A program made the position numbers and the translations under genes. 25,371 nt of DNA from a virus, in IMG/VR virus record IMGVR_UViG_3300024261_000144, positions 1-25,371 of that record. One strand, written 5' to 3'. Below the pieces are notes generated by a model. That model saw only the letters and a list, made by a program, of their open reading frames with translations, did not search any database and had not been told where the DNA came from. Positions 314-8,287 of the stretch are shown here, in pieces (the stretch's first letter is position 1; every line of letters starts with the position of its first letter).

Positions 314-321
314 ATAAATAT
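314..321. promoter_or_regulatory. ATAAATAT octamer, gap before the leftmost fibre gene
   Basis: The plus strand reads TATAAATAT here (313-321), overlapping the stop codon of the 173-aa fibre gene and 35 nt upstream of the next start. It is one of seven copies confined to gaps. TATAAATA is the T4 late-promoter core, but here it points away from the genes. Confidence 0.4.
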
Positions 322-842
322 TAGATTGGTGAGTTTTCGTACCCTAAATACCATACTGAACTACTATAATACATTCCACCCTTTTGTGGTGTCGGTATTG
401 AAGTAGATTCCCCTAATATTATTACTTTATTATCTATCTGTATAGATATTTCATCACTACTATTTTTTAGTGTGAATAAATTGTCTGGGTTGTTAGCCCT
501 AAACTCGAAGTTAGAACCAGTAACTTGTAAACCTGTTGCTGCTCCACTACCACTCGTATTAAAGGTTACTCCATTATAGGTGAAACCATCTGTCAAACTT
601 AGTGAATCTATGTTTGCAGTTCCATCTATATGTAAATCTTTCCATTGGAAGGTTGAACTTCCCAAATCCATAATATCATCTGCGGTAGGTGTAAGTGAAC
701 CACTAATACTAACACTACCTGTAAATTGGTGTGTATCATCTAAACTATCACCGAACCTTGTTGAACCACCACTTAGTGAACCACTAAGATAAAATGAACC
801 AGTCAATCGTGGATTCAGTTGTTTACTATCTATTAATGCCAT
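321..842 (-). CDS. Tail-fibre-like protein, 173 aa
   Basis: Starts at ATG 842, overlapping the end of the NUMOD3-like gene by 17 nt. Residues about 15-50 contain alternating TGS/SGS turns and the module GGSTRFGDSLDD-H--TGS, which also occurs in the 281-aa and 563-aa proteins upstream. The middle (DIMDLGSSTFQWKDLHIDG) resembles the segments that often precede C-terminal trimerisation regions of phage fibres. The C-terminus is rich in Tyr and Trp. There is no signal peptide or membrane segment. It is probably a short tail fibre or adhesin subunit. The function is inferred from repeat style and from lying downstream of gp15; I cannot assign a specific T4 fibre homologue. Confidence 0.7.
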   Translation of the reverse strand: MALIDSKQLNPRLTGSFYLSGSLSGGSTRFGDSLDDTHQFTGSVSISGSLTPTADDIMDLGSSTFQWKDLHIDGTANIDSLSLTDGFTYNGVTFNTSGSGAATGLQVTGSNFEFRANNPDNLFTLKNSSDEISIQIDNKVIILGESTSIPTPQKGGMYYSSSVWYLGYENSPI

Positions 843-1101
843 GTCTTATCTCTTCTTGTTTACGTTCTTCCCACCAATTCTGTATTGAATTAGAAATCTT
901 TTTCTTATGTTGGATAGTCTTTGGTTGTTTCATCTTTTCAATCGTATCCAACGTTAACTTTCTATCAGATTGTGCACACGATTTACACACACTATTATTA
1001 CCAACTGCTCTATCAAAAGCATCTTTTCTTGAATATGTTAACATCTTAGTACAAGATGGACATTTTCTATTTTTTCTATCCTTAACACTTCTTTTTCTCA
1101 T
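826..1101 (-). CDS. Small zinc-finger / NUMOD3-like DNA-binding protein
   Basis: The best start is ATG at 1101 (MRKRSVKDRK), giving 91 aa; a TTG five codons earlier is possible. Neither has a clear Shine-Dalgarno sequence. Near the N-terminus are two CxxC pairs (CPSC and CKSC) about 23 residues apart, likely one zinc site. The C-terminal half (TIEKMKQ, then HKKKISNSIQNWW) matches the style of NUMOD3, the helical DNA-binding module of GIY-YIG and HNH homing endonucleases. No nuclease motif is present, so this is an orphan DNA-binding protein or a remnant of a homing endonuclease. It sits between two fibre genes and overlaps the next one by 17 nt. The family assignment is by eye. Confidence 0.6.
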   Translation of the reverse strand: MRKRSVKDRKNRKCPSCTKMLTYSRKDAFDRAVGNNSVCKSCAQSDRKLTLDTIEKMKQPKTIQHKKKISNSIQNWWEERKQEEIRHGINR

Positions 1102-1105
1102 ACTA

Positions 1106-1113
1106 ATAAATAT
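1106..1113. promoter_or_regulatory. ATAAATAT octamer next to the NUMOD3-like gene start
   Basis: The plus-strand octamer lies only 4 nt upstream of ATG 1101 (minus-strand context TGATATTTATTAGTATG). The same gap contains its reverse complement at 1146-1153, where the minus strand reads CATAAATAT in the correct orientation to act as a T4-type late promoter for this gene. Confidence 0.4.
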
Positions 1114-1145
1114 CAAACAATGGTAAAACCAATGTGGGAATCTCT

Positions 1146-1153
1146 ATATTTAT
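1146..1153 (-). promoter_or_regulatory. Possible T4-type late promoter (CATAAATA on minus strand)
   Basis: The minus strand reads CATAAATATAGAG across the stop codon of the 281-aa fibre gene, 45 nt upstream of ATG 1101. It fits the T4/cyanophage late-promoter core NATAAATA in the direction of transcription. It is the only copy of the octamer that points the right way in this window. Confidence 0.4.
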
Positions 1154-1995
1154 GAATTAAATTTTCCCCAAGCAACCACTTCATCACCACTTACCAGATT
1201 AAATCCTAACGATGTAGTATTTATATGGGTTAAAAATTTAGAACCACTTTGTTCTATTGTTAATGCATCTGGTTCCATTAACATACCATTTAAAAAGAAT
1301 TGAAAATCATTTTTTGTTGTAGTTGTTAATGTACTTACTGATGCGGTAACTGCAGTAAATGAGGCAGTTGAATTTGTCATCGTTCCCGATTTTGCAAAAT
1401 TCTTTCTAAGGAAAACACTATTAGGCCCTGAAGCACCTAACACCCCTGTGTATGCTGCTGCTTCTGTTACGAGTGCAGTACTACTCCCATCACTAAAATC
1501 TGAATTATTACTTATGGTATCTATCTCAACACCATTAACACTCATTGAACCACTAATAGAATAACTACCAGTTATATTATGTACATCATCGAGTGTATTA
1601 CCGAATGTTGTACTACCACTTTGGTGTATTGTGGTTACTGATGAACCACTAAAATTTGATGCTCCATATGATACCGAACCAAGTATTGTTACATCATCTT
1701 CATGTGTATAATTCTCACTAACAACAAGGTCATTTGTAAATGCTATTGTTGAACCTGATATAAACCCATATCCCAATACCATATTTTGAGTACCGGCATT
1801 ATTAGGAATAATAAATGTTTGAGTTTCATCAAGATTGGTTTCGTTAAAAGTTACATTGGAACTTGTGGCAACAGTCTGCCCTATACTTAATTCGTTTATT
1901 GCCGGCAATAACCCATCCATCTCACCATCAAAGGATGATGTGAAACCTGTTCCATCTGATATTGTTAATGGGTTTTTAAATGTAAATAATGGCAT
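1150..1995 (-). CDS. Tail-fibre-like protein, 281 aa, paralogous to the gp15 extension
   Basis: Starts at ATG 1995 (AAGGTAATAGATG). It is rich in Ser, Thr, Gly and Asn throughout. Residues about 37-53 carry SIGQ-V-T-SNVTFN, which is also present in the upstream 563-aa protein. The middle carries the shared module GSTTFGNTLDDVHNITGS. The last 120 residues align end to end with the C-terminus of the 563-aa protein: LVTEAA, FTAVTAS, NDF-FF-NG, M--DA-TI-QSGS and the terminal GKFNS are identical or nearly so. This indicates duplication of a fibre domain. It is likely a tail-fibre or baseplate-associated subunit; the receptor and exact place in the particle cannot be read from the sequence. Confidence 0.72.
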   Translation of the reverse strand: MPLFTFKNPLTISDGTGFTSSFDGEMDGLLPAINELSIGQTVATSSNVTFNETNLDETQTFIIPNNAGTQNMVLGYGFISGSTIAFTNDLVVSENYTHEDDVTILGSVSYGASNFSGSSVTTIHQSGSTTFGNTLDDVHNITGSYSISGSMSVNGVEIDTISNNSDFSDGSSTALVTEAAAYTGVLGASGPNSVFLRKNFAKSGTMTNSTASFTAVTASVSTLTTTTKNDFQFFLNGMLMEPDALTIEQSGSKFLTHINTTSLGFNLVSGDEVVAWGKFNS

Positions 1996-2003
1996 CTATT
2001 ACC

Positions 2004-3695
2004 TTATGAGTTAAATTTACCTACCGATATAATCTCATCATCACTTTCTAATTCATATCCGATTCCATCTGTATCTACTTGTAGTAAAAAAGATGAACCA
2101 CTTTGTTGAATTGTTATTGCATCGTGTTCCATATATTGCCCGTTGATAAAGAATAGGAAATCATTTTCATCTGTTGCAGTTACACCAGCTGGTGCAGATG
2201 CAGTTACAGCAGTAAACGATGCAGTTGCAGTATTAAGAATAGATGTGGTAGATTTATAAAATTGTTTTCTTAAATAATCTTGGGTATCTTCTACATTACT
2301 TGTTGTAAATGCTTTTAATGCTGCTTCAGTTACTAATGTAGTTGTACTTTGGTCTCCTAATGTACTATCATTAGATATTTCATTTACACTATATCCATTT
2401 AAACTAAACGAACCAGTTATGTTTACACTACCAGTTCTGTGATGATTATCATCGATGGTATCTCCCAACTTAGTAGAACCACTTTCAAATAATATACTCG
2501 AAGAAACATAGGTTGTTTTAAATTCTTTTGCAGTTAGTGTACCTAATATTGTGGTATCACCTTGTACAGTCATGTCTCCACTTGTAGTTAATGAACCTGT
2601 TATATTTACACTACCACTAATACCAGTGTAGGAATAGACTGTCGGATTACCAAATATTAATGAACCAGCAGTTATCTGATTAAAGGTTACATTTGATGTA
2701 GTACTAACATCTTGACCTATTGAAATTGTTTGTGCTACTGCTTGTGAACCATCAAATGTTGCACCATTATTACTTAATGTAACACCTGTTCCTGCTTGAA
2801 ATGTTAATCCATTTGATACCGCTATGGAAAATATATCTTGTACTGGTGTTGAAATGGATACCCCACCACCTGGTCCAACTGCAGAGATTTCTGCTGAACT
2901 CTTCTCAACATCCATATTGAATATAATCTTTTTAGGTGTGAGTTGTTTTCTTGTAGTTATTAAACTATTAAATTCTTTGGGTATAATATACCCCATTAAT
3001 TGAACACTAAAATTAGTCTTTACTATTCGTTCACCAGCATCCAATTCACTTGCATCTGTAAAGGTTTCTATTCTACTTTTGAATTTCATCTTACCAGGTT
3101 CACCCCAATAAGCACCATCCGTATAATTTATCTTTTCTACAATTGCATTCATCTGTTCAATATATGAAGTCCAAATAGTAAACTCGTAACTCAATATCAT
3201 ATAATCTGGTATAACTACATTGTAATATTCTTTATTTGGTGTTTCACCGACAGTTTTTGAAAATTGGTCGTAACGATTATTTTGTGAATATTTCTGTTGG
3301 AATGTTTGAAAATTGTGTGGTTTGTTTGCATCCATCTTATCAATAGGTATATTTTCATTTCTCTCCATACCTGTTCTACGGAATACAATTGCTGGTGTAA
3401 TTAATTGTTGTCGTTTATCTCTCATAAACCCCTGTTTTTGTATAGAAAACCATCTCTCTGGTGATGCATACATAACTGGAACTTTGATTGTTTCTTTATT
3501 TTCTACGACATTAGGTTTAATTACTTCATTGAAATAGTACATGATTGCACCATCAATATCCATAATGGTATTTGATATGTTTTGTACCTTATCATTATCT
3601 CTTCGTATCTCATTACCTCTATTGTAATCATCGCGGATTGCAACCGAGTTCAAATCTCTACGAACTTTTCTTGGTATAGGTTTACTTCTTGCCAT
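2004..3695 (-). CDS. 15: gp15-like tail terminator/sheath stabiliser fused to a fibre-like domain
   Basis: The start is ATG 3695 in a TAATG overlap with gp14. Residues 1-265 resemble T4 gp15, the protein that caps the tail tube and sheath and joins tail to head. Matching features are the VPVMYAS segment (about 72-78; T4 has VPITYAS), the helix LSYEFTIWTSYIEQMNAIVE (168-187) and the closing FSVQLMGYIIP (229-239; T4 has a similar EVNGWMYP end). T4 gp15 is 272 aa, so a normal-length homologue ends near residue 265. Residues 270-563 are a different, Ser/Thr/Gly-rich fibre-like region with SIGQ-V-T-SNVTFN, GSTKLGDTIDD-H and a C-terminus shared with the next gene. No frameshift or stop lies between the halves. 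The gp15 call is fairly secure; the role of the extension is unknown. Confidence 0.8.
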   Translation of the reverse strand: MARSKPIPRKVRRDLNSVAIRDDYNRGNEIRRDNDKVQNISNTIMDIDGAIMYYFNEVIKPNVVENKETIKVPVMYASPERWFSIQKQGFMRDKRQQLITPAIVFRRTGMERNENIPIDKMDANKPHNFQTFQQKYSQNNRYDQFSKTVGETPNKEYYNVVIPDYMILSYEFTIWTSYIEQMNAIVEKINYTDGAYWGEPGKMKFKSRIETFTDASELDAGERIVKTNFSVQLMGYIIPKEFNSLITTRKQLTPKKIIFNMDVEKSSAEISAVGPGGGVSISTPVQDIFSIAVSNGLTFQAGTGVTLSNNGATFDGSQAVAQTISIGQDVSTTSNVTFNQITAGSLIFGNPTVYSYTGISGSVNITGSLTTSGDMTVQGDTTILGTLTAKEFKTTYVSSSILFESGSTKLGDTIDDNHHRTGSVNITGSFSLNGYSVNEISNDSTLGDQSTTTLVTEAALKAFTTSNVEDTQDYLRKQFYKSTTSILNTATASFTAVTASAPAGVTATDENDFLFFINGQYMEHDAITIQQSGSSFLLQVDTDGIGYELESDDEIISVGKFNS

Positions 3696-4180
3696 TAAAA
3701 CGCCCTTGTTTGTTCAATATTTAGTGAACTTATTCTTGTTAAGTTTGCTGTACATGAGATTGTCCAATTTTTATTAAAATCTCCTGCAACTAATTGGTTC
3801 TCATTCGTACCATTTATTTCAAAATAACCTAAGTTCCAACTGATAACATCACCAATATCAGGCCTGAAACTAACATCAATTAACATATCTCGTTGAAAAT
3901 GTATTGTTATATTTTGTCCCGCATCGGGTCCAAACTCATTTGATTCCCAATTGAAATCTTCTGCCTCTATGATACACGATAACTTAATTCCTGATTCATA
4001 AGTTTTACCCTCACCTGCTTCACCATACATATTTGTTGTTGTATCATATAATGAAACTCTGTAAAGTATCACATCTTGACCAATGATTCCCTCTGTTCCA
4101 TCTTTGAGATTTCCCACGAGTTCATCGTTGAATCGTTTAGCTAAGTTTGTGTCTCTTGTTGGCCAATATCTACTTGCCAT
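3695..4180 (-). CDS. 14: Neck protein gp14-like
   Basis: 161 aa, starting at ATG 4180, 4 nt after gp13 ends, with its stop overlapping the gp15 start as TAATG. In T4, gp13 and gp14 form the neck collar that seals the portal after DNA packaging. The assignment rests on gene order (13-14-15) and on the segment DIGDVISWNLGYFEI (108-122), which matches the P-xGD-I-F-----FEI block of T4 gp14. ITIHFQRDMLID (91-102) also corresponds to the T4 strand before it. The protein is shorter than T4 gp14 (256 aa), as I recall for marine T4-like phages. No enzymatic motif is seen. Confidence 0.75.
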   Translation of the reverse strand: MASRYWPTRDTNLAKRFNDELVGNLKDGTEGIIGQDVILYRVSLYDTTTNMYGEAGEGKTYESGIKLSCIIEAEDFNWESNEFGPDAGQNITIHFQRDMLIDVSFRPDIGDVISWNLGYFEINGTNENQLVAGDFNKNWTISCTANLTRISSLNIEQTRAF

Positions 4181-4184
4181 TTGA

Positions 4185-5342
4185 TTATCCTATATAAATT
4201 GGGTAAGGAACTTTCTTTAACTTCTCTTGTAAGTTGTCGGAAACTTCTCTATCAGCTTCTAATAATGCCTTATTACTTGTTTGGTCTAACATTTCTCTCA
4301 ATTGTTCTATCAATTGTTCTTTTTCTGCAGCTGCTTCTGCTCTCAAAGTATCTCCATCTAATGAGACTTCTGAACCTGGTATGGGAATACTCCCATATTT
4401 TCCCCTAATCATACCCAATAACTCTTTTGATAATGACATCCCATACTTTCTAATCCATTGTTTACCAACATCGTTGATATTAACATATTTCATATTATCA
4501 TATGGTGCATTACTAATATCTGATATAGTATCGTTAGAACCACTATATCGTGTTCGTAATGCGTTATCTCTATCCGTTACCTTACTCCACTCTAACCATA
4601 GTGAACCTGTTGCGGTACTTGTCCATCGTGGGAATATTCGTAATTTGTTATTAACTATTTCAAATGAATGTCCAGATTTTCTAATTTGGTCATTAAATTC
4701 TATTGCCTGTACTCTAAGTAAATCAGCAAATACTGGTTGTAATACAAACGATATTGCTGGTGATTTACCACCAAAGCCAAACCCATCTAACATATTATTT
4801 GTTTGATTTCCAGTTCCAGCGTAAGGGTCAAAGTACCTTGTGATTGCTGGATTAGCTTCGTGAAATACTCTCTTAACTTCGATTGGACCACTACCACTGG
4901 TGTCTGCTATTAATTCATTTAAATCATAATCTTGTGAACCACTCGTGAGTGTAATCTTATTTTTATAAACTTCTACCTGTCCACCTACACCTGCTTCACT
5001 TCCATAGGTTTCTGATAAGAATATCTGCTCACCCATAGTATTAGATAATCGTTTATGTGTATAATTAGAACTTGTTGATTGTCCCTTTAAACTTAATAAA
5101 TTATCTTTAATATTAAATTGGTTTACTTGGGCAGAATATTCTGTAATACTTTCTTCAAAACATGCATAAAATTGTAAATCTTGTATTTCAACTGCGGTTA
5201 TTGGATAACCCAATCGTTTCGCACACCATGATGCAAATTTTGGTGCATCTGATTGGAATGTAGTATCAGTATCATAAAACCCAAATGGTGTTGATTCACT
5301 TACTGCCGAACCACTCCCTGGCCATATTGGTTCTTGTGCCAT
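4185..5342 (-). CDS. 13: Neck protein gp13-like
   Basis: 385 aa, ATG at 5342 behind AGGAG (TATAGGAGAATTTATATG). It is the likely counterpart of T4 gp13, which joins the portal vertex to the tail with gp14. The N-terminal part has FASWCAKRLGYPITAVEI, matching the T4 opening (LRRLGAPIINVEL). The C-terminal part has YGMSLSKELLGMIRGKYGSI, PIPGSEVSLDG and a Glu-rich helix AEKEQLIEQLRE, matching the T4 AKELNGQILARHQG, PGGVTIDG and EKEALREEL blocks. It is about 75 residues longer than T4 gp13. It is the first gene after the terminator that follows gp23, so it probably heads a separate neck-and-fibre transcript with gp14, gp15 and the fibre genes. Confidence 0.87.
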   Translation of the reverse strand: MAQEPIWPGSGSAVSESTPFGFYDTDTTFQSDAPKFASWCAKRLGYPITAVEIQDLQFYACFEESITEYSAQVNQFNIKDNLLSLKGQSTSSNYTHKRLSNTMGEQIFLSETYGSEAGVGGQVEVYKNKITLTSGSQDYDLNELIADTSGSGPIEVKRVFHEANPAITRYFDPYAGTGNQTNNMLDGFGFGGKSPAISFVLQPVFADLLRVQAIEFNDQIRKSGHSFEIVNNKLRIFPRWTSTATGSLWLEWSKVTDRDNALRTRYSGSNDTISDISNAPYDNMKYVNINDVGKQWIRKYGMSLSKELLGMIRGKYGSIPIPGSEVSLDGDTLRAEAAAEKEQLIEQLREMLDQTSNKALLEADREVSDNLQEKLKKVPYPIYIG

Positions 5343-5483: not shown

Positions 5484-7139
5484 TTAAACTAAGTTTATGT
5501 CTGCGACCGTGACTGTTCCGTAATATTCTGGACGAACCATTTTCTTAGCGTAACGTGTCATTACCCCTTTACGTGGTGTAAAGTTTTTAGGGTCATAGAC
5601 AAGTGGTGTCATAATTAATGGAACATACGGAGCATAAACCGCACCGGTTTCAAGGAAATTACTTCCTCGGAAACCACATAGGATTTTGTTCTCTAGCATG
5701 TAAGGGTTCTTATAGACAGTATATCTGTTATTAAGAGCTCCTACTTTTTGTACGCCCATTGCGAAAGATGAATTAGTAGCATCACCATTCGTATCAGCAG
5801 CATATCCAGGAATAGACTCTATAATTGTAGCAGTTTCAGGTGATACCACGATGAAATTTGCTCCGCCTCTTAGAGTTTTTTGATGAATTGCGTTAGATAC
5901 TGATTGGATTTTGTTACCCAATGTCTGGAACCAAGTTCCTTTTGTGTAAGCAGATGCGTTAGCAGCTGTTTCTTCGAAAAGACCTGTTGCAGAATTGTAT
6001 TCATTACCAACTTTTGCTGACCATTTTTCTGCTTTAGCAGAAGCGTTAGCAAACAACATATCAAGAATTTCCAAATCAATTTCCATTGAAATGTATTCAC
6101 TTAATAGTGCTGTTAATTCAGCTTCAGCATCAACTGAATGATAAGCATTTAAGTCTTGAGCAAGTTCTGGAGTCCAGACTGCTTTTAACTTACGAGTTTT
6201 CGCGATAATCGGAATACTCTTTAATGCAATATCTAATTCAGGAATATCAATGTCACCCTCTGGGTTAGCATCTATATTTGCTGCTGTTGCTTCAAAGTCA
6301 GTTCTATCATAATTCTGACCTTTAACTTTATGGTAAGAAACGACAACATTTGCTATTGCAGTTGCTACGTCTTTTCTTACGATAAAAGTTATTCCGGATG
6401 TAGATGAATCATAAGTAGTGTAAGCTGGGAATATTTCATCGAAGCCTGAACCACTAATTGTGAATGCACGAACACCATCTGAGTCGAAATCACTTAATCC
6501 ACCAGTGTGGATTGTTACTTTTGCCAAACCATCATCAGCTAAATAGCCAGTTGATATGGATGCGGATAAGTCTGGTTCAAAATCAACATCACCCCAGGCA
6601 GCAGAACCAGTAGTAAAATTACCACTTGATAATGCTGCAGCTGCAGCTTGAACACCAGAATCGGTGTCGTTGATTGAATATCCAAATTTACCAGCGCCGT
6701 ATAAACCGCCAGTTGCGTCTACGTTTGAACCTGATGTGTTACCATGTACATCAGCATTATTTGTATGGTTATCTGTTTGTGCAGTACCATATTTAAAGTC
6801 AAGATAGAAAATCAGACCTGAAGGTAAATTCATTGGCTGAACACTAACAAATTCTTGAGCAGCAAGCTCCCCAAAAATTCTTCGAACTAAAGGAAGTGCA
6901 ACACCTGACCACTCTTCTGAGTTTGCAGATGTACCAGTTCTTGAGGCTTCATCAATTAATTGACGAGCTTGATTCTCAAGCAGTACTGCCATTCCATTTA
7001 CTTCATGTTCTTTGCCCATGCCTTCTAAAAGACCTGTTGGCTCCCATTTCTTGACCAATTTGCGAGTTTGTTCCAATAGTTGTCTTTGTGGATTATAACC
7101 ATCCATCAAGTTTTCTATTGTACTTAGTTTTTTACTCAT
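5484..7139 (-). CDS. 23: Major capsid protein gp23
   Basis: The HK97-fold major capsid protein of T4-type phages. I start it at ATG 7139 (MSKKLSTIEN, 551 aa) because GGGAG lies 8 nt upstream; an in-frame TTG at 7154 lies upstream of that site. Diagnostic blocks are LPLVRRIFGELAAQEFVSVQP (T4: MVRRAIPNLIAFDICGVQP), KTRKLKAVWTPELAQDL (T4: KSRQLKAAYSIELAQDL), VDAEAELTALLSEYISMEI, and near the C-terminus GAVYAPYVPL and YDPKNF-P-KGVMTRYAKK. T4 gp23 is cut by gp21 after Glu65. The same place here reads LIDE-ASRTG with Glu64, so a similar maturation cut is expected. The gene follows gp22 and is followed by a strong terminator, consistent with very high expression. Confidence 0.97.
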   Translation of the reverse strand: MSKKLSTIENLMDGYNPQRQLLEQTRKLVKKWEPTGLLEGMGKEHEVNGMAVLLENQARQLIDEASRTGTSANSEEWSGVALPLVRRIFGELAAQEFVSVQPMNLPSGLIFYLDFKYGTAQTDNHTNNADVHGNTSGSNVDATGGLYGAGKFGYSINDTDSGVQAAAAALSSGNFTTGSAAWGDVDFEPDLSASISTGYLADDGLAKVTIHTGGLSDFDSDGVRAFTISGSGFDEIFPAYTTYDSSTSGITFIVRKDVATAIANVVVSYHKVKGQNYDRTDFEATAANIDANPEGDIDIPELDIALKSIPIIAKTRKLKAVWTPELAQDLNAYHSVDAEAELTALLSEYISMEIDLEILDMLFANASAKAEKWSAKVGNEYNSATGLFEETAANASAYTKGTWFQTLGNKIQSVSNAIHQKTLRGGANFIVVSPETATIIESIPGYAADTNGDATNSSFAMGVQKVGALNNRYTVYKNPYMLENKILCGFRGSNFLETGAVYAPYVPLIMTPLVYDPKNFTPRKGVMTRYAKKMVRPEYYGTVTVADINLV

Positions 7140-7147
7140 TATTGTGT

Positions 7148-7152
7148 CTCCC
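7148..7152 (-). promoter_or_regulatory. Ribosome site that decides the gp23 start
   Basis: The minus strand reads GGGAG 8 nt before ATG 7139. The longer frame would start at a TTG (7154) upstream of this site, so the ATG start is preferred. Confidence 0.8.
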
Positions 7153-7159
7153 AATAGTA

Positions 7160-8287
7160 TTAAAGTATGTTAGCTAACTTTTGAAAACGATTCTTCAAAT
7201 CACTACCTTCAGATATTACATCTTTAGATGGTTTTGTTGAAGCGACTGTTTTCGAACTTGAACCTTTTGATTCCTTAATAGGTTGAGCTTTACGACCTTG
7301 GAATGATTCTGCAAGTGTAGAATACACAAGTTTAATCTCTCTAAGATTTGCTGCTCTATCAAAAGTTTCAACAACTTTCATTTTCTGTTCGTTGGTTAGA
7401 CCAAACGCACGGAAAAGTTTGTTGGAAAACAATAGTTTCGCATTTAATAGGTTAACTTCATTTAGTTTTGAACGAAGATATTTTACAACATCTCTATGTT
7501 CCTTAATTTCTTTCGAAAGCTTCTTCACTTCCTCAACCGAATCTTCTTCATCTTCCTCTTCAGATAATGCTTTAAGAACTTCTTCTAAATCAATATCTTC
7601 ATCGACGTCAGCATCTTCGTCAGCATGTTGTTCAGCTTCAGGTGCGGTTTCTTCCTCACCCTCGTCTCCAGCTTCTTCATCTGCCCCCTCACCTTCTGGT
7701 GCTTGCGCGCCAGTTTCGGAAGAGTCATTTGAATCGTCATCAACAGCATTATCATCTTCTCCGATATCAGATGAATCTTCCAAGTCCTCATCGACTGGTT
7801 CTTCATCTTCTTCTTCTTTGATGTCTGCTTCTAATTCTGCAAGAATAGATTCTAAATCAAGGTCGTCCTCATCTTCAGCTTCTTCAGATTCTTCTACTGA
7901 ATCATCTTCATCTGCTTCTTCTTCGGATTCTTCCACTGCATCTTCAGATTCTTCTGCATCGTCTACTTCTTCACCTTCAGTTGAAACTGGCTCTTCAGCC
8001 GCTTCTTCATCATCAGGAACTTCAGCTTCTTCTACAGCAGCATCTTCATCAGCATGTTGGTCATCAGCAGGGGCTTCTTCAGCTCCGTCTGGTGCGTCAT
8101 CTTCTTCGTAAGTTTCTTCAACTCCATCTTCAGATTCATCATCTTCGATTTCGTGTTGAATTTTCTTCGACAACATTGATTTAAGTTGTGGTGTGAATGC
8201 TTCTTCAAGTGCCATTTTAGCGTTTGCTAATGCAGTTTCTCTAACTGCTTTTGCGTCGGCAATGGCTTCTTTTAGTAAATCATCCAT
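7160..8287 (-). CDS. 22: Prohead core scaffolding protein gp22-like
   Basis: 375 aa, ATG 8287 behind TATGGAG. In T4, gp22 is the main scaffold around which gp23 assembles; gp21 then degrades it to small acidic peptides. The N-terminus (LLKEAIADAKAVRETALANA) is a predicted helix. Residues about 46-255 are extremely rich in Glu and Asp, interrupted by two similar hydrophobic islands, DLDLESILAELEADI and DIDLEEVLKALSE. The C-terminal 110 residues are a basic, coiled-coil-like region (VEEVKKLSKEIKEHRDVVKY) followed by LTNEQKMKVVETFDRA. The position directly before gp23 is as in T4. It is longer than T4 gp22 (269 aa), the excess being in the acidic part. The skewed composition produces a long serine-rich open frame on the other strand, which I treat as an artefact. 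Confidence 0.9.
   Translation of the reverse strand: MDDLLKEAIADAKAVRETALANAKMALEEAFTPQLKSMLSKKIQHEIEDDESEDGVEETYEEDDAPDGAEEAPADDQHADEDAAVEEAEVPDDEEAAEEPVSTEGEEVDDAEESEDAVEESEEEADEDDSVEESEEAEDEDDLDLESILAELEADIKEEEDEEPVDEDLEDSSDIGEDDNAVDDDSNDSSETGAQAPEGEGADEEAGDEGEEETAPEAEQHADEDADVDEDIDLEEVLKALSEEEDEEDSVEEVKKLSKEIKEHRDVVKYLRSKLNEVNLLNAKLLFSNKLFRAFGLTNEQKMKVVETFDRAANLREIKLVYSTLAESFQGRKAQPIKESKGSSSKTVASTKPSKDVISEGSDLKNRFQKLANIL

What the first reader, a model, noticed from the sequence alone, without database searches (positions are those of the whole stretch)
2004..3695. Tail terminator gp15 carries a fibre-like C-terminal half
Seen: the first 265 residues match T4 gp15 in length and motifs, then 300 Ser/Thr/Gly-rich residues follow in the same frame, with modules shared with the next gene. 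Known: gp15 forms a ring at the head-tail junction and has no fibres in T4. Inference: this phage may display collar or whisker fibres from its tail terminator, adding a receptor-binding or environment-sensing surface at the neck.
Basis: partly seen in the sequence, partly recalled or inferred. Interest (0 to 1): 0.62.

Follow-up and report, generated by a model that had tools for sequence, protein, structure and literature searches.

The report
Tail terminator gp15 with fused fibre
In a large group of uncultured T4-like phages, the ring protein that caps the tail below the head carries an extra fibre-like arm ending in a strongly conserved knob, and that knob is gained, split off and lost together with a neighbouring set of fibre genes, which suggests it is a mounting point for fibres at the phage neck.

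Summary
ORF 2004-3695(-) is one 563-residue chain. Residues 1-255 are T4 gp15 by sequence profile (the only PDB matches, E 4e-4) and by fold (Z 13.1). Residues 256-563 are a variable linker, a Ser/Thr/Gly-rich shaft and a compact knob. The fusion is no assembly error: 79 of 80 IMG/VR relatives carry it whole and the 80th is cut off by its contig end. In longer records the knob occurs twice, on gp15 and on the next gene. In the Flavobacterium phage immuto lineage it sits directly on gp15, is a separate adjacent gene, or is absent. With the knob, the sheath gene is never within 1.3 kb of gp15 (0 of 146 loci); without it, it is in six of nine, with no fibre cassette between. One near-identical pair differs by loss of both. 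Fibre-docking domains lead the knob's fold matches, but only at Z 5 to 7.6. Best reading: a new variant of gp15 whose arm holds collar fibres encoded beside it. The neck location, the docking and the stoichiometry are inferred.

The parts
2004..3695 (-). gp15-fibre fusion, 563 aa (whole ORF)
2931..3695 (-). residues 1-255: T4 gp15 tail (sheath) terminator domain
   Evidence: profile hits only T4 gp15 in PDB, PHROG_227, fold Z 13.1 to 4huh
2796..2930 (-). residues 256-300: linker, 26% mean pairwise identity, 42-80 residues long in relatives; probable flexible tether
   Evidence: low pLDDT
2331..2795 (-). residues 301-455: Ser/Thr/Gly-rich beta shaft, shared with the next gene
2226..2330 (-). 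residues 456-490: hinge with a helix predicted from about residue 449 to 475 (possible trimeric coiled coil)
2007..2225 (-). residues 491-563: conserved beta knob (tip)
   Evidence: 75% mean pairwise identity; model pLDDT 92; weak fold matches to fibre-anchor and adaptor domains
1150..1995 (-). ORF2, 281 aa: stand-alone shaft + tip paralogue of the gp15 C half
   Evidence: 45% identity over residues 293-563; next to gp15 in nearly all relatives
826..1116 (-). 96-aa conserved ORF with CxxC pairs (zinc-ribbon-like) inside the cassette
   Evidence: 76% median identity in 48 loci; no Pfam match over cut-off
321..842 (-). cassette fibre ORF (173 aa) with the conserved N-terminal peptide MALIDSKQLNPRLTGSF
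3695..4180 (-). 161-aa conserved protein between gp13 and gp15 (gp14 position; not assigned by profile)
   Evidence: present in 78 loci; no PHROG hit
4185..5342 (-). gp13-like head-tail adaptor
   Evidence: PHROG_211 E 2.5e-11
5484..7154 (-). major capsid protein gp23
   Evidence: PF07068 E 9e-78

Best explanation
The protein is a T4-type tail terminator (gp15) whose C-terminus continues, through a flexible linker, into a fibre arm and a conserved knob. Six copies should form the usual ring that caps the sheath at the head-tail junction; the arms then project from the neck. The knob is most likely a docking module: it holds, or trimerises with, fibres encoded directly downstream (ORF2, which repeats the same shaft and knob, and the variable cassette ORFs, many of which begin with a common MA-x-[IL]-x-x-(K/E)-Q-(I/L) peptide). 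Host contact would then be made by the variable cassette proteins, with gp15 as their mount. Shown by sequence: the fusion, the gp15 fold, the conservation pattern, the linkage of knob and cassette, and natural splits and losses. Inferred: neck location, surface exposure, docking, stoichiometry.
For: gp15 fold and profile. Fusion conserved in 79 of 80 relatives. The tip is the best conserved part and about as conserved as gp23. The tip module occurs exactly twice in 14 of 15 records, on gp15 and ORF2, and once in L079, which lacks ORF2. In the immuto lineage the tip is fused to gp15 without the shaft, is a separate ORF directly after a naked gp15 (L285, L294, L306, L277), or is absent: a 'Rosetta stone' pattern of partner proteins. 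Tip and cassette go together: sheath gene within 1.3 kb of gp15 in 0 of 146 loci with the tip and 6 of 9 without (p 5e-9). The cassette peptide is found in 77 of 96 loci with the tip, 0 of 8 without, and 2 of 952 upstream ORFs, both of those in loci where tip and cassette lie upstream. L306 and L307, near-identical over the gp15 3' end and the first codons of the tip gene, then differ by loss of tip gene plus cassette. Tip fold: the first five matches are portal-tail or fibre-attachment proteins and the TSP4 docking domain of CBA120, which binds partner tailspikes (PMC8825819).
Against: Tip fold matches are weak (Z at most 7.6; Foldseek E 0.03). No experiment places the arm at the neck. gp15 is a hexamer and fibres are trimers, so the symmetry must be resolved somehow. 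The peptide motif was found by eye first; a profile trained on the window's lineage did not pass its threshold in the immuto lineage. Loci are related, so the Fisher p values overstate the evidence; by my reading of the tree there are about five separate tip losses. Three of the nine tipless genomes do not have the sheath within 1.3 kb of gp15; all three have fibre-like ORFs downstream of it, though without the peptide.
Confidence: 0.5

Rival explanations
1. One reading: the gp15 arm is itself a receptor-binding or environment-sensing collar fibre.
For: Fibre-like shaft and knob on a neck protein; surface-exposed fibres often bind host glycans.
Against: The knob is the least variable part of the chain across phages of diverse samples, under purifying selection; the variable proteins are in the cassette next door. 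It is repeatedly lost without loss of gp15.
Confidence: 0.18
2. A fibritin-like whisker fused to gp15: it binds the long tail fibres to help their attachment and retraction, as T4 fibritin does from the same place.
For: In T4 the fibritin loop contacts gp15 and its ends bind the long tail fibre (PMC3004832). A conserved tip with a conserved partner fits.
Against: No similarity to fibritin was found (PF07921 0 of 12 records, but the control did not ring, so inconclusive). The arm is linked to adjacent fibre genes, not shown to be linked to long-tail-fibre genes.
Confidence: 0.2
3. The knob is only a trimerisation and folding cap, and the arm is passive decoration.
For: High conservation and a helix followed by a compact domain, as in foldon-type ends.
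Against: Does not explain why tip and cassette are gained and lost together or why a stand-alone tip gene exists next to naked gp15.
Confidence: 0.1
4. Assembly artefact or chance read-through between two genes.
For: None beyond one contig (L121/L293) with a stop between ring and tip, and L250 with a frameshift.
Against: Same in-frame fusion in 79 of 80 relatives from many samples, dN/dS well below 1 over the whole chain.
Confidence: 0.01

Closest known systems
T4 gp15 tail terminator (PDB 4hud/4huh, 9mkb)
   Same: Ring domain fold (Z 13.1), sequence profile, place near gp13-like and capsid genes
   Different: T4 gp15 is 272 aa and ends after the ring domain; here about 300 further residues of linker, shaft and knob follow
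T4 fibritin (wac), neck whisker
   Same: Fibre at the neck that contacts gp15 (PMC3004832)
   Different: Separate gene, alpha-helical coiled coil; here the fibre is covalently part of gp15 and mostly beta
XD2/XD3 docking domains of T4 gp10 and CBA120 TSP4; portal-tail proteins of podophages (HRP29, LME-1, P-SCSP1u) and cyanophage A4
   Same: Small beta domain matched by the knob at Z 5-7.6; the XD modules join trimeric fibres to a tail (PMC8825819)
   Different: Those sit on baseplate or short-tail proteins; no sequence similarity detected, fold match weak
Phage 812 gp99 tail terminator
   Same: Terminator with an added beta-sandwich domain (PMC12886913)
   Different: That domain locks the sheath; it is not a fibre, and whiskers there attach elsewhere
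Flavobacterium phage immuto gp15 homologue (QQO92131.1, annotated as hypothetical protein)
   Same: gp15 domain 38.6% identical, ends in the same knob
   Different: No shaft; followed by other fibre genes

Membership tests
T4 gp15 tail terminator | Sequence profile match to gp15 | tested here: met
   A2 HMM hits only gp15 in PDB, E 4e-4; PHROG_227 in 22/38 members
T4 gp15 tail terminator | gp15 fold | tested here: met
   VIA Z 13.1, 146 residues, 3.3 A to 4huh; next entry 11.0
T4 gp15 tail terminator | Gene neighbourhood gp13 - small protein - gp15, with the tail sheath gene downstream | tested here: met
   gp13-like by PHROG_211, gp23, sheath gene downstream of the cassette in L001 and others
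T4 gp15 tail terminator | Hexameric ring on the last sheath and tube disc | not testable with these tools
   No multimer prediction or virion data
T4 fibritin (whisker) | Fibritin C-terminal (foldon) domain | tested here: inconclusive
   PF07921 0 of 12 records, but no control genome rang; no Pfam hit on the C half
T4 fibritin (whisker) | Segmented alpha-helical coiled coil | tested here: not met
   The C half is predicted mostly beta with one helix of about 27 residues; the shaft model is of low confidence
gp10/TSP4 XD2-XD3 docking module | Same fold | tested here: inconclusive
   Z 6.1 to TSP4 residues 187-250, 59 residues, 2.3 A; under the tool's trust level of 8
gp10/TSP4 XD2-XD3 docking module | Binds another trimeric fibre protein | not testable with these tools
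   Only indirect: genetic linkage of tip and cassette

The most novel reading that the evidence does not exclude
The tail terminator ring of a large lineage of aquatic T4-like phages is the base of a second, neck-mounted adhesion apparatus: gp15 carries a common docking knob, ORF2 completes trimers with it (solving six-fold to three-fold symmetry), and a swappable cassette of fibres plugs in through a short N-terminal peptide. The unit is gained and lost as a module, and naked gp15 paralogues that arose at least three times dilute the arms in the ring.
Probability: 0.3. Interest if true: 0.75.

Novelty: new variant of a known kind. Interest (0 to 1): 0.55.

Why it matters
Neck and collar fibres are poorly understood, and how they attach is known in few phages. 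A covalent fusion of gp15 to a fibre arm, with a conserved knob co-inherited with a variable fibre cassette, gives a direct genetic handle on what neck fibres do. Natural split, fused and deleted versions, including a near-identical pair (L306/L307), are ready-made comparisons. The cultured Flavobacterium phage immuto carries a form of it, so the idea can be tested in a laboratory phage. It would also give names to many 'hypothetical proteins' in T4-like phage genomes from environmental samples.

Tried and rejected
Assembly error: rejected. Pfam and PHROG searches of the C half and tip: nothing convincing. PDB sequence search with the tip profile: only noise, E 0.04 or worse; the weak phmmer match to a spore-appendage subunit (9n0b, E 0.041) reappears as a fold match at Z 4.3 and F-ENA at Z 5.0, too weak to claim. 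Foldseek of the tip in PDB: nothing under E 0.001; in BFVD the three matches under E 0.001 are uncharacterised phage proteins. A PSSM of the cassette peptide trained on the window lineage failed to carry over above its threshold, partly because the control set held true motif ORFs; the regular-expression counts are therefore only suggestive, and the regex was chosen after seeing examples. Mel-JY01 gp15 as query found no further relatives in IMG/VR. L195-L197 first looked tipless, but L196 and L197 carry tip and cassette upstream of a naked gp15. The whole-chain AlphaFold model is poor in the shaft (pLDDT under 50 in parts), as expected for one chain of a trimer. No paper that I found in the held library describes a gp15-fibre fusion; most subscription journals are not covered. 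No description of phage immuto's morphology was found there.

Full report
Observation. The ORF at 2004-3695 on the minus strand is a single frame of 563 codons. It lies in a T4-like virion gene block: terminase, portal gp20, protease, gp23, a gp13-like adaptor and a 161-residue protein precede it in transcription order. The window is a 25 kb virus record; it holds one gp15 domain.

The first half is gp15. A profile built from 38 relatives of residues 1-265 matches only T4 gp15 among all PDB sequences, at E 4e-4. PHROG_227, 'tail sheath stabilizer', matches 22 of 38 members. The AlphaFold model's ring domain matches T4 gp15 at Z 13.1 over 146 residues, ahead of the next entry at 11.0; most of the rows below are other tail terminators and neck or cap proteins.

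The second half. Ser, Thr and Gly make up 38.6% of residues 266-563 and 14.7% of the first half. Conservation over 59 non-redundant fused proteins divides the chain: ring domain 63% mean pairwise identity, linker 256-300 26% with length 42-80, shaft 51-61%, hinge 46%, tip 491-563 75%. Against the window, the tip is about as well conserved as the major capsid protein. The 80 loci were found with six peptide patterns, some of them from the tip, so the set leans towards conserved tips; loci found with ring-domain patterns alone (L178, L194, L243) still show 60-66% identity over tip and hinge. Purifying selection acts on all parts. The tip was modelled on its own with 72 sequences at pLDDT 92: a long helix and a small beta domain. 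The next gene, ORF2, repeats shaft and tip at 45% identity. In 15 longer records the tip module occurs exactly twice, on gp15 and on ORF2, except in one record that lacks ORF2.

The fusion is natural and old. Of 80 relatives, 79 have the complete fusion and one is cut off by its contig end. Eighteen of them also hold a naked gp15 of 257-278 residues directly upstream. On the tree the naked copies form separate groups nested among fused ones, and well-supported branches force at least three changes, so they look like repeated secondary duplications. In the lineage of Flavobacterium phage immuto, gp15 ends in the same knob without the shaft. There are further states: another C-terminal domain of about 192 residues, a 618-residue extension (L246), naked gp15 with a separate adjacent tip gene, and naked gp15 alone.

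Tip and fibre cassette travel together. Between gp15 and the sheath gene most of these phages have a cassette of fibre-like ORFs. In 146 loci with the tip (or the other long C-terminal part) and enough sequence, the sheath is never within 1.3 kb of gp15. In nine tipless loci it is in six. The remaining three tipless loci have fibre-like ORFs downstream of gp15. Many cassette ORFs start with a common peptide (window: MALIDSKQLNPRLTGSF; immuto: MAQIFWEQIRDLLPLDGKFLTGSL). A pattern for it is present in 77 of 96 loci with the tip, 0 of 8 without, and 2 of 952 upstream ORFs, both in loci with an upstream tip and cassette. L306 and L307 are sisters, near-identical through the end of gp15 and the first codons of the stand-alone tip gene; from there L307 is unrelated, reaches the sheath gene within 0.9 kb, and has neither the tip gene nor the cassette. 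The tree of this lineage requires several separate losses. These loci are related to each other, so the p values (5e-9 and 9e-6) overstate the evidence.

What the tip resembles. The five best VIA matches are proteins of phage tails: A4 portal-tail complex, LME-1, CBA120 TSP4 residues 187-250, P-SCSP1u and HRP29, Z 7.6 to 5.6. TSP4's domain there is XD2, which with XD3 binds partner tailspikes, as XD2 and XD3 of T4 gp10 bind partner trimers of the baseplate (PMC8825819). All are below the level at which a single match should be trusted; the consistency is suggestive only.

Mechanism. Established knowledge: gp15 is a hexamer that caps the sheath, and T4's separate whisker protein fibritin contacts gp15 (PMC3004832). 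Inference: here the arm leaves the ring through a flexible linker and ends in a knob that mounts fibres from the neighbouring cassette. The conserved knob would be the socket and the variable cassette proteins the plugs that meet the host. How six gp15 chains make trimeric arms is open: two trimers, or six heterotrimers with two ORF2 chains each; naked copies could also thin out the arms. None of this stoichiometry was tested.

Verdict. A new variant of a known protein, testable in a cultured phage.

Noticed in passing
window 321-842; L014 8854-12424: The window's 173-aa cassette ORF looks like a deletion join: its first 25 residues match an 810-aa ORF and its last 148 a following 375-aa ORF in L014, a phage with a 99% identical gp15 ring domain. 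The cassette is hypervariable between near-identical phages.
   Followed up: partly
window 826-1116 (-); L196 580-864: A 96-aa ORF with CxxC pairs (zinc-ribbon-like) lies between the tip gene and the cassette ORFs; it is found in 48 loci at 76% median identity and has no Pfam family over cut-off. A regulator or a homing-endonuclease remnant is possible.
   Followed up: partly
L025, L027-L029, L037, L040, L041, L044-L048, L050, L056, L061, L072, L075, L077: Tandem naked gp15 directly upstream of the fused copy in 18 of 80 loci, arisen at least three times by the tree.
   Followed up: partly
L246 3953-6592: An 879-aa gp15 whose C-terminal 618 residues form a much longer fibre-like extension.
   Followed up: no
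L138 3351-4061: A 236-aa ORF that looks like a GIY-YIG homing endonuclease lies between naked gp15 and the sheath gene (read by eye, not tested).
   Followed up: no
window 7160-8287 (-): 375-aa ORF upstream of gp23 with a very acidic Glu/Asp repeat region (scaffold gp22 position).
   Followed up: no
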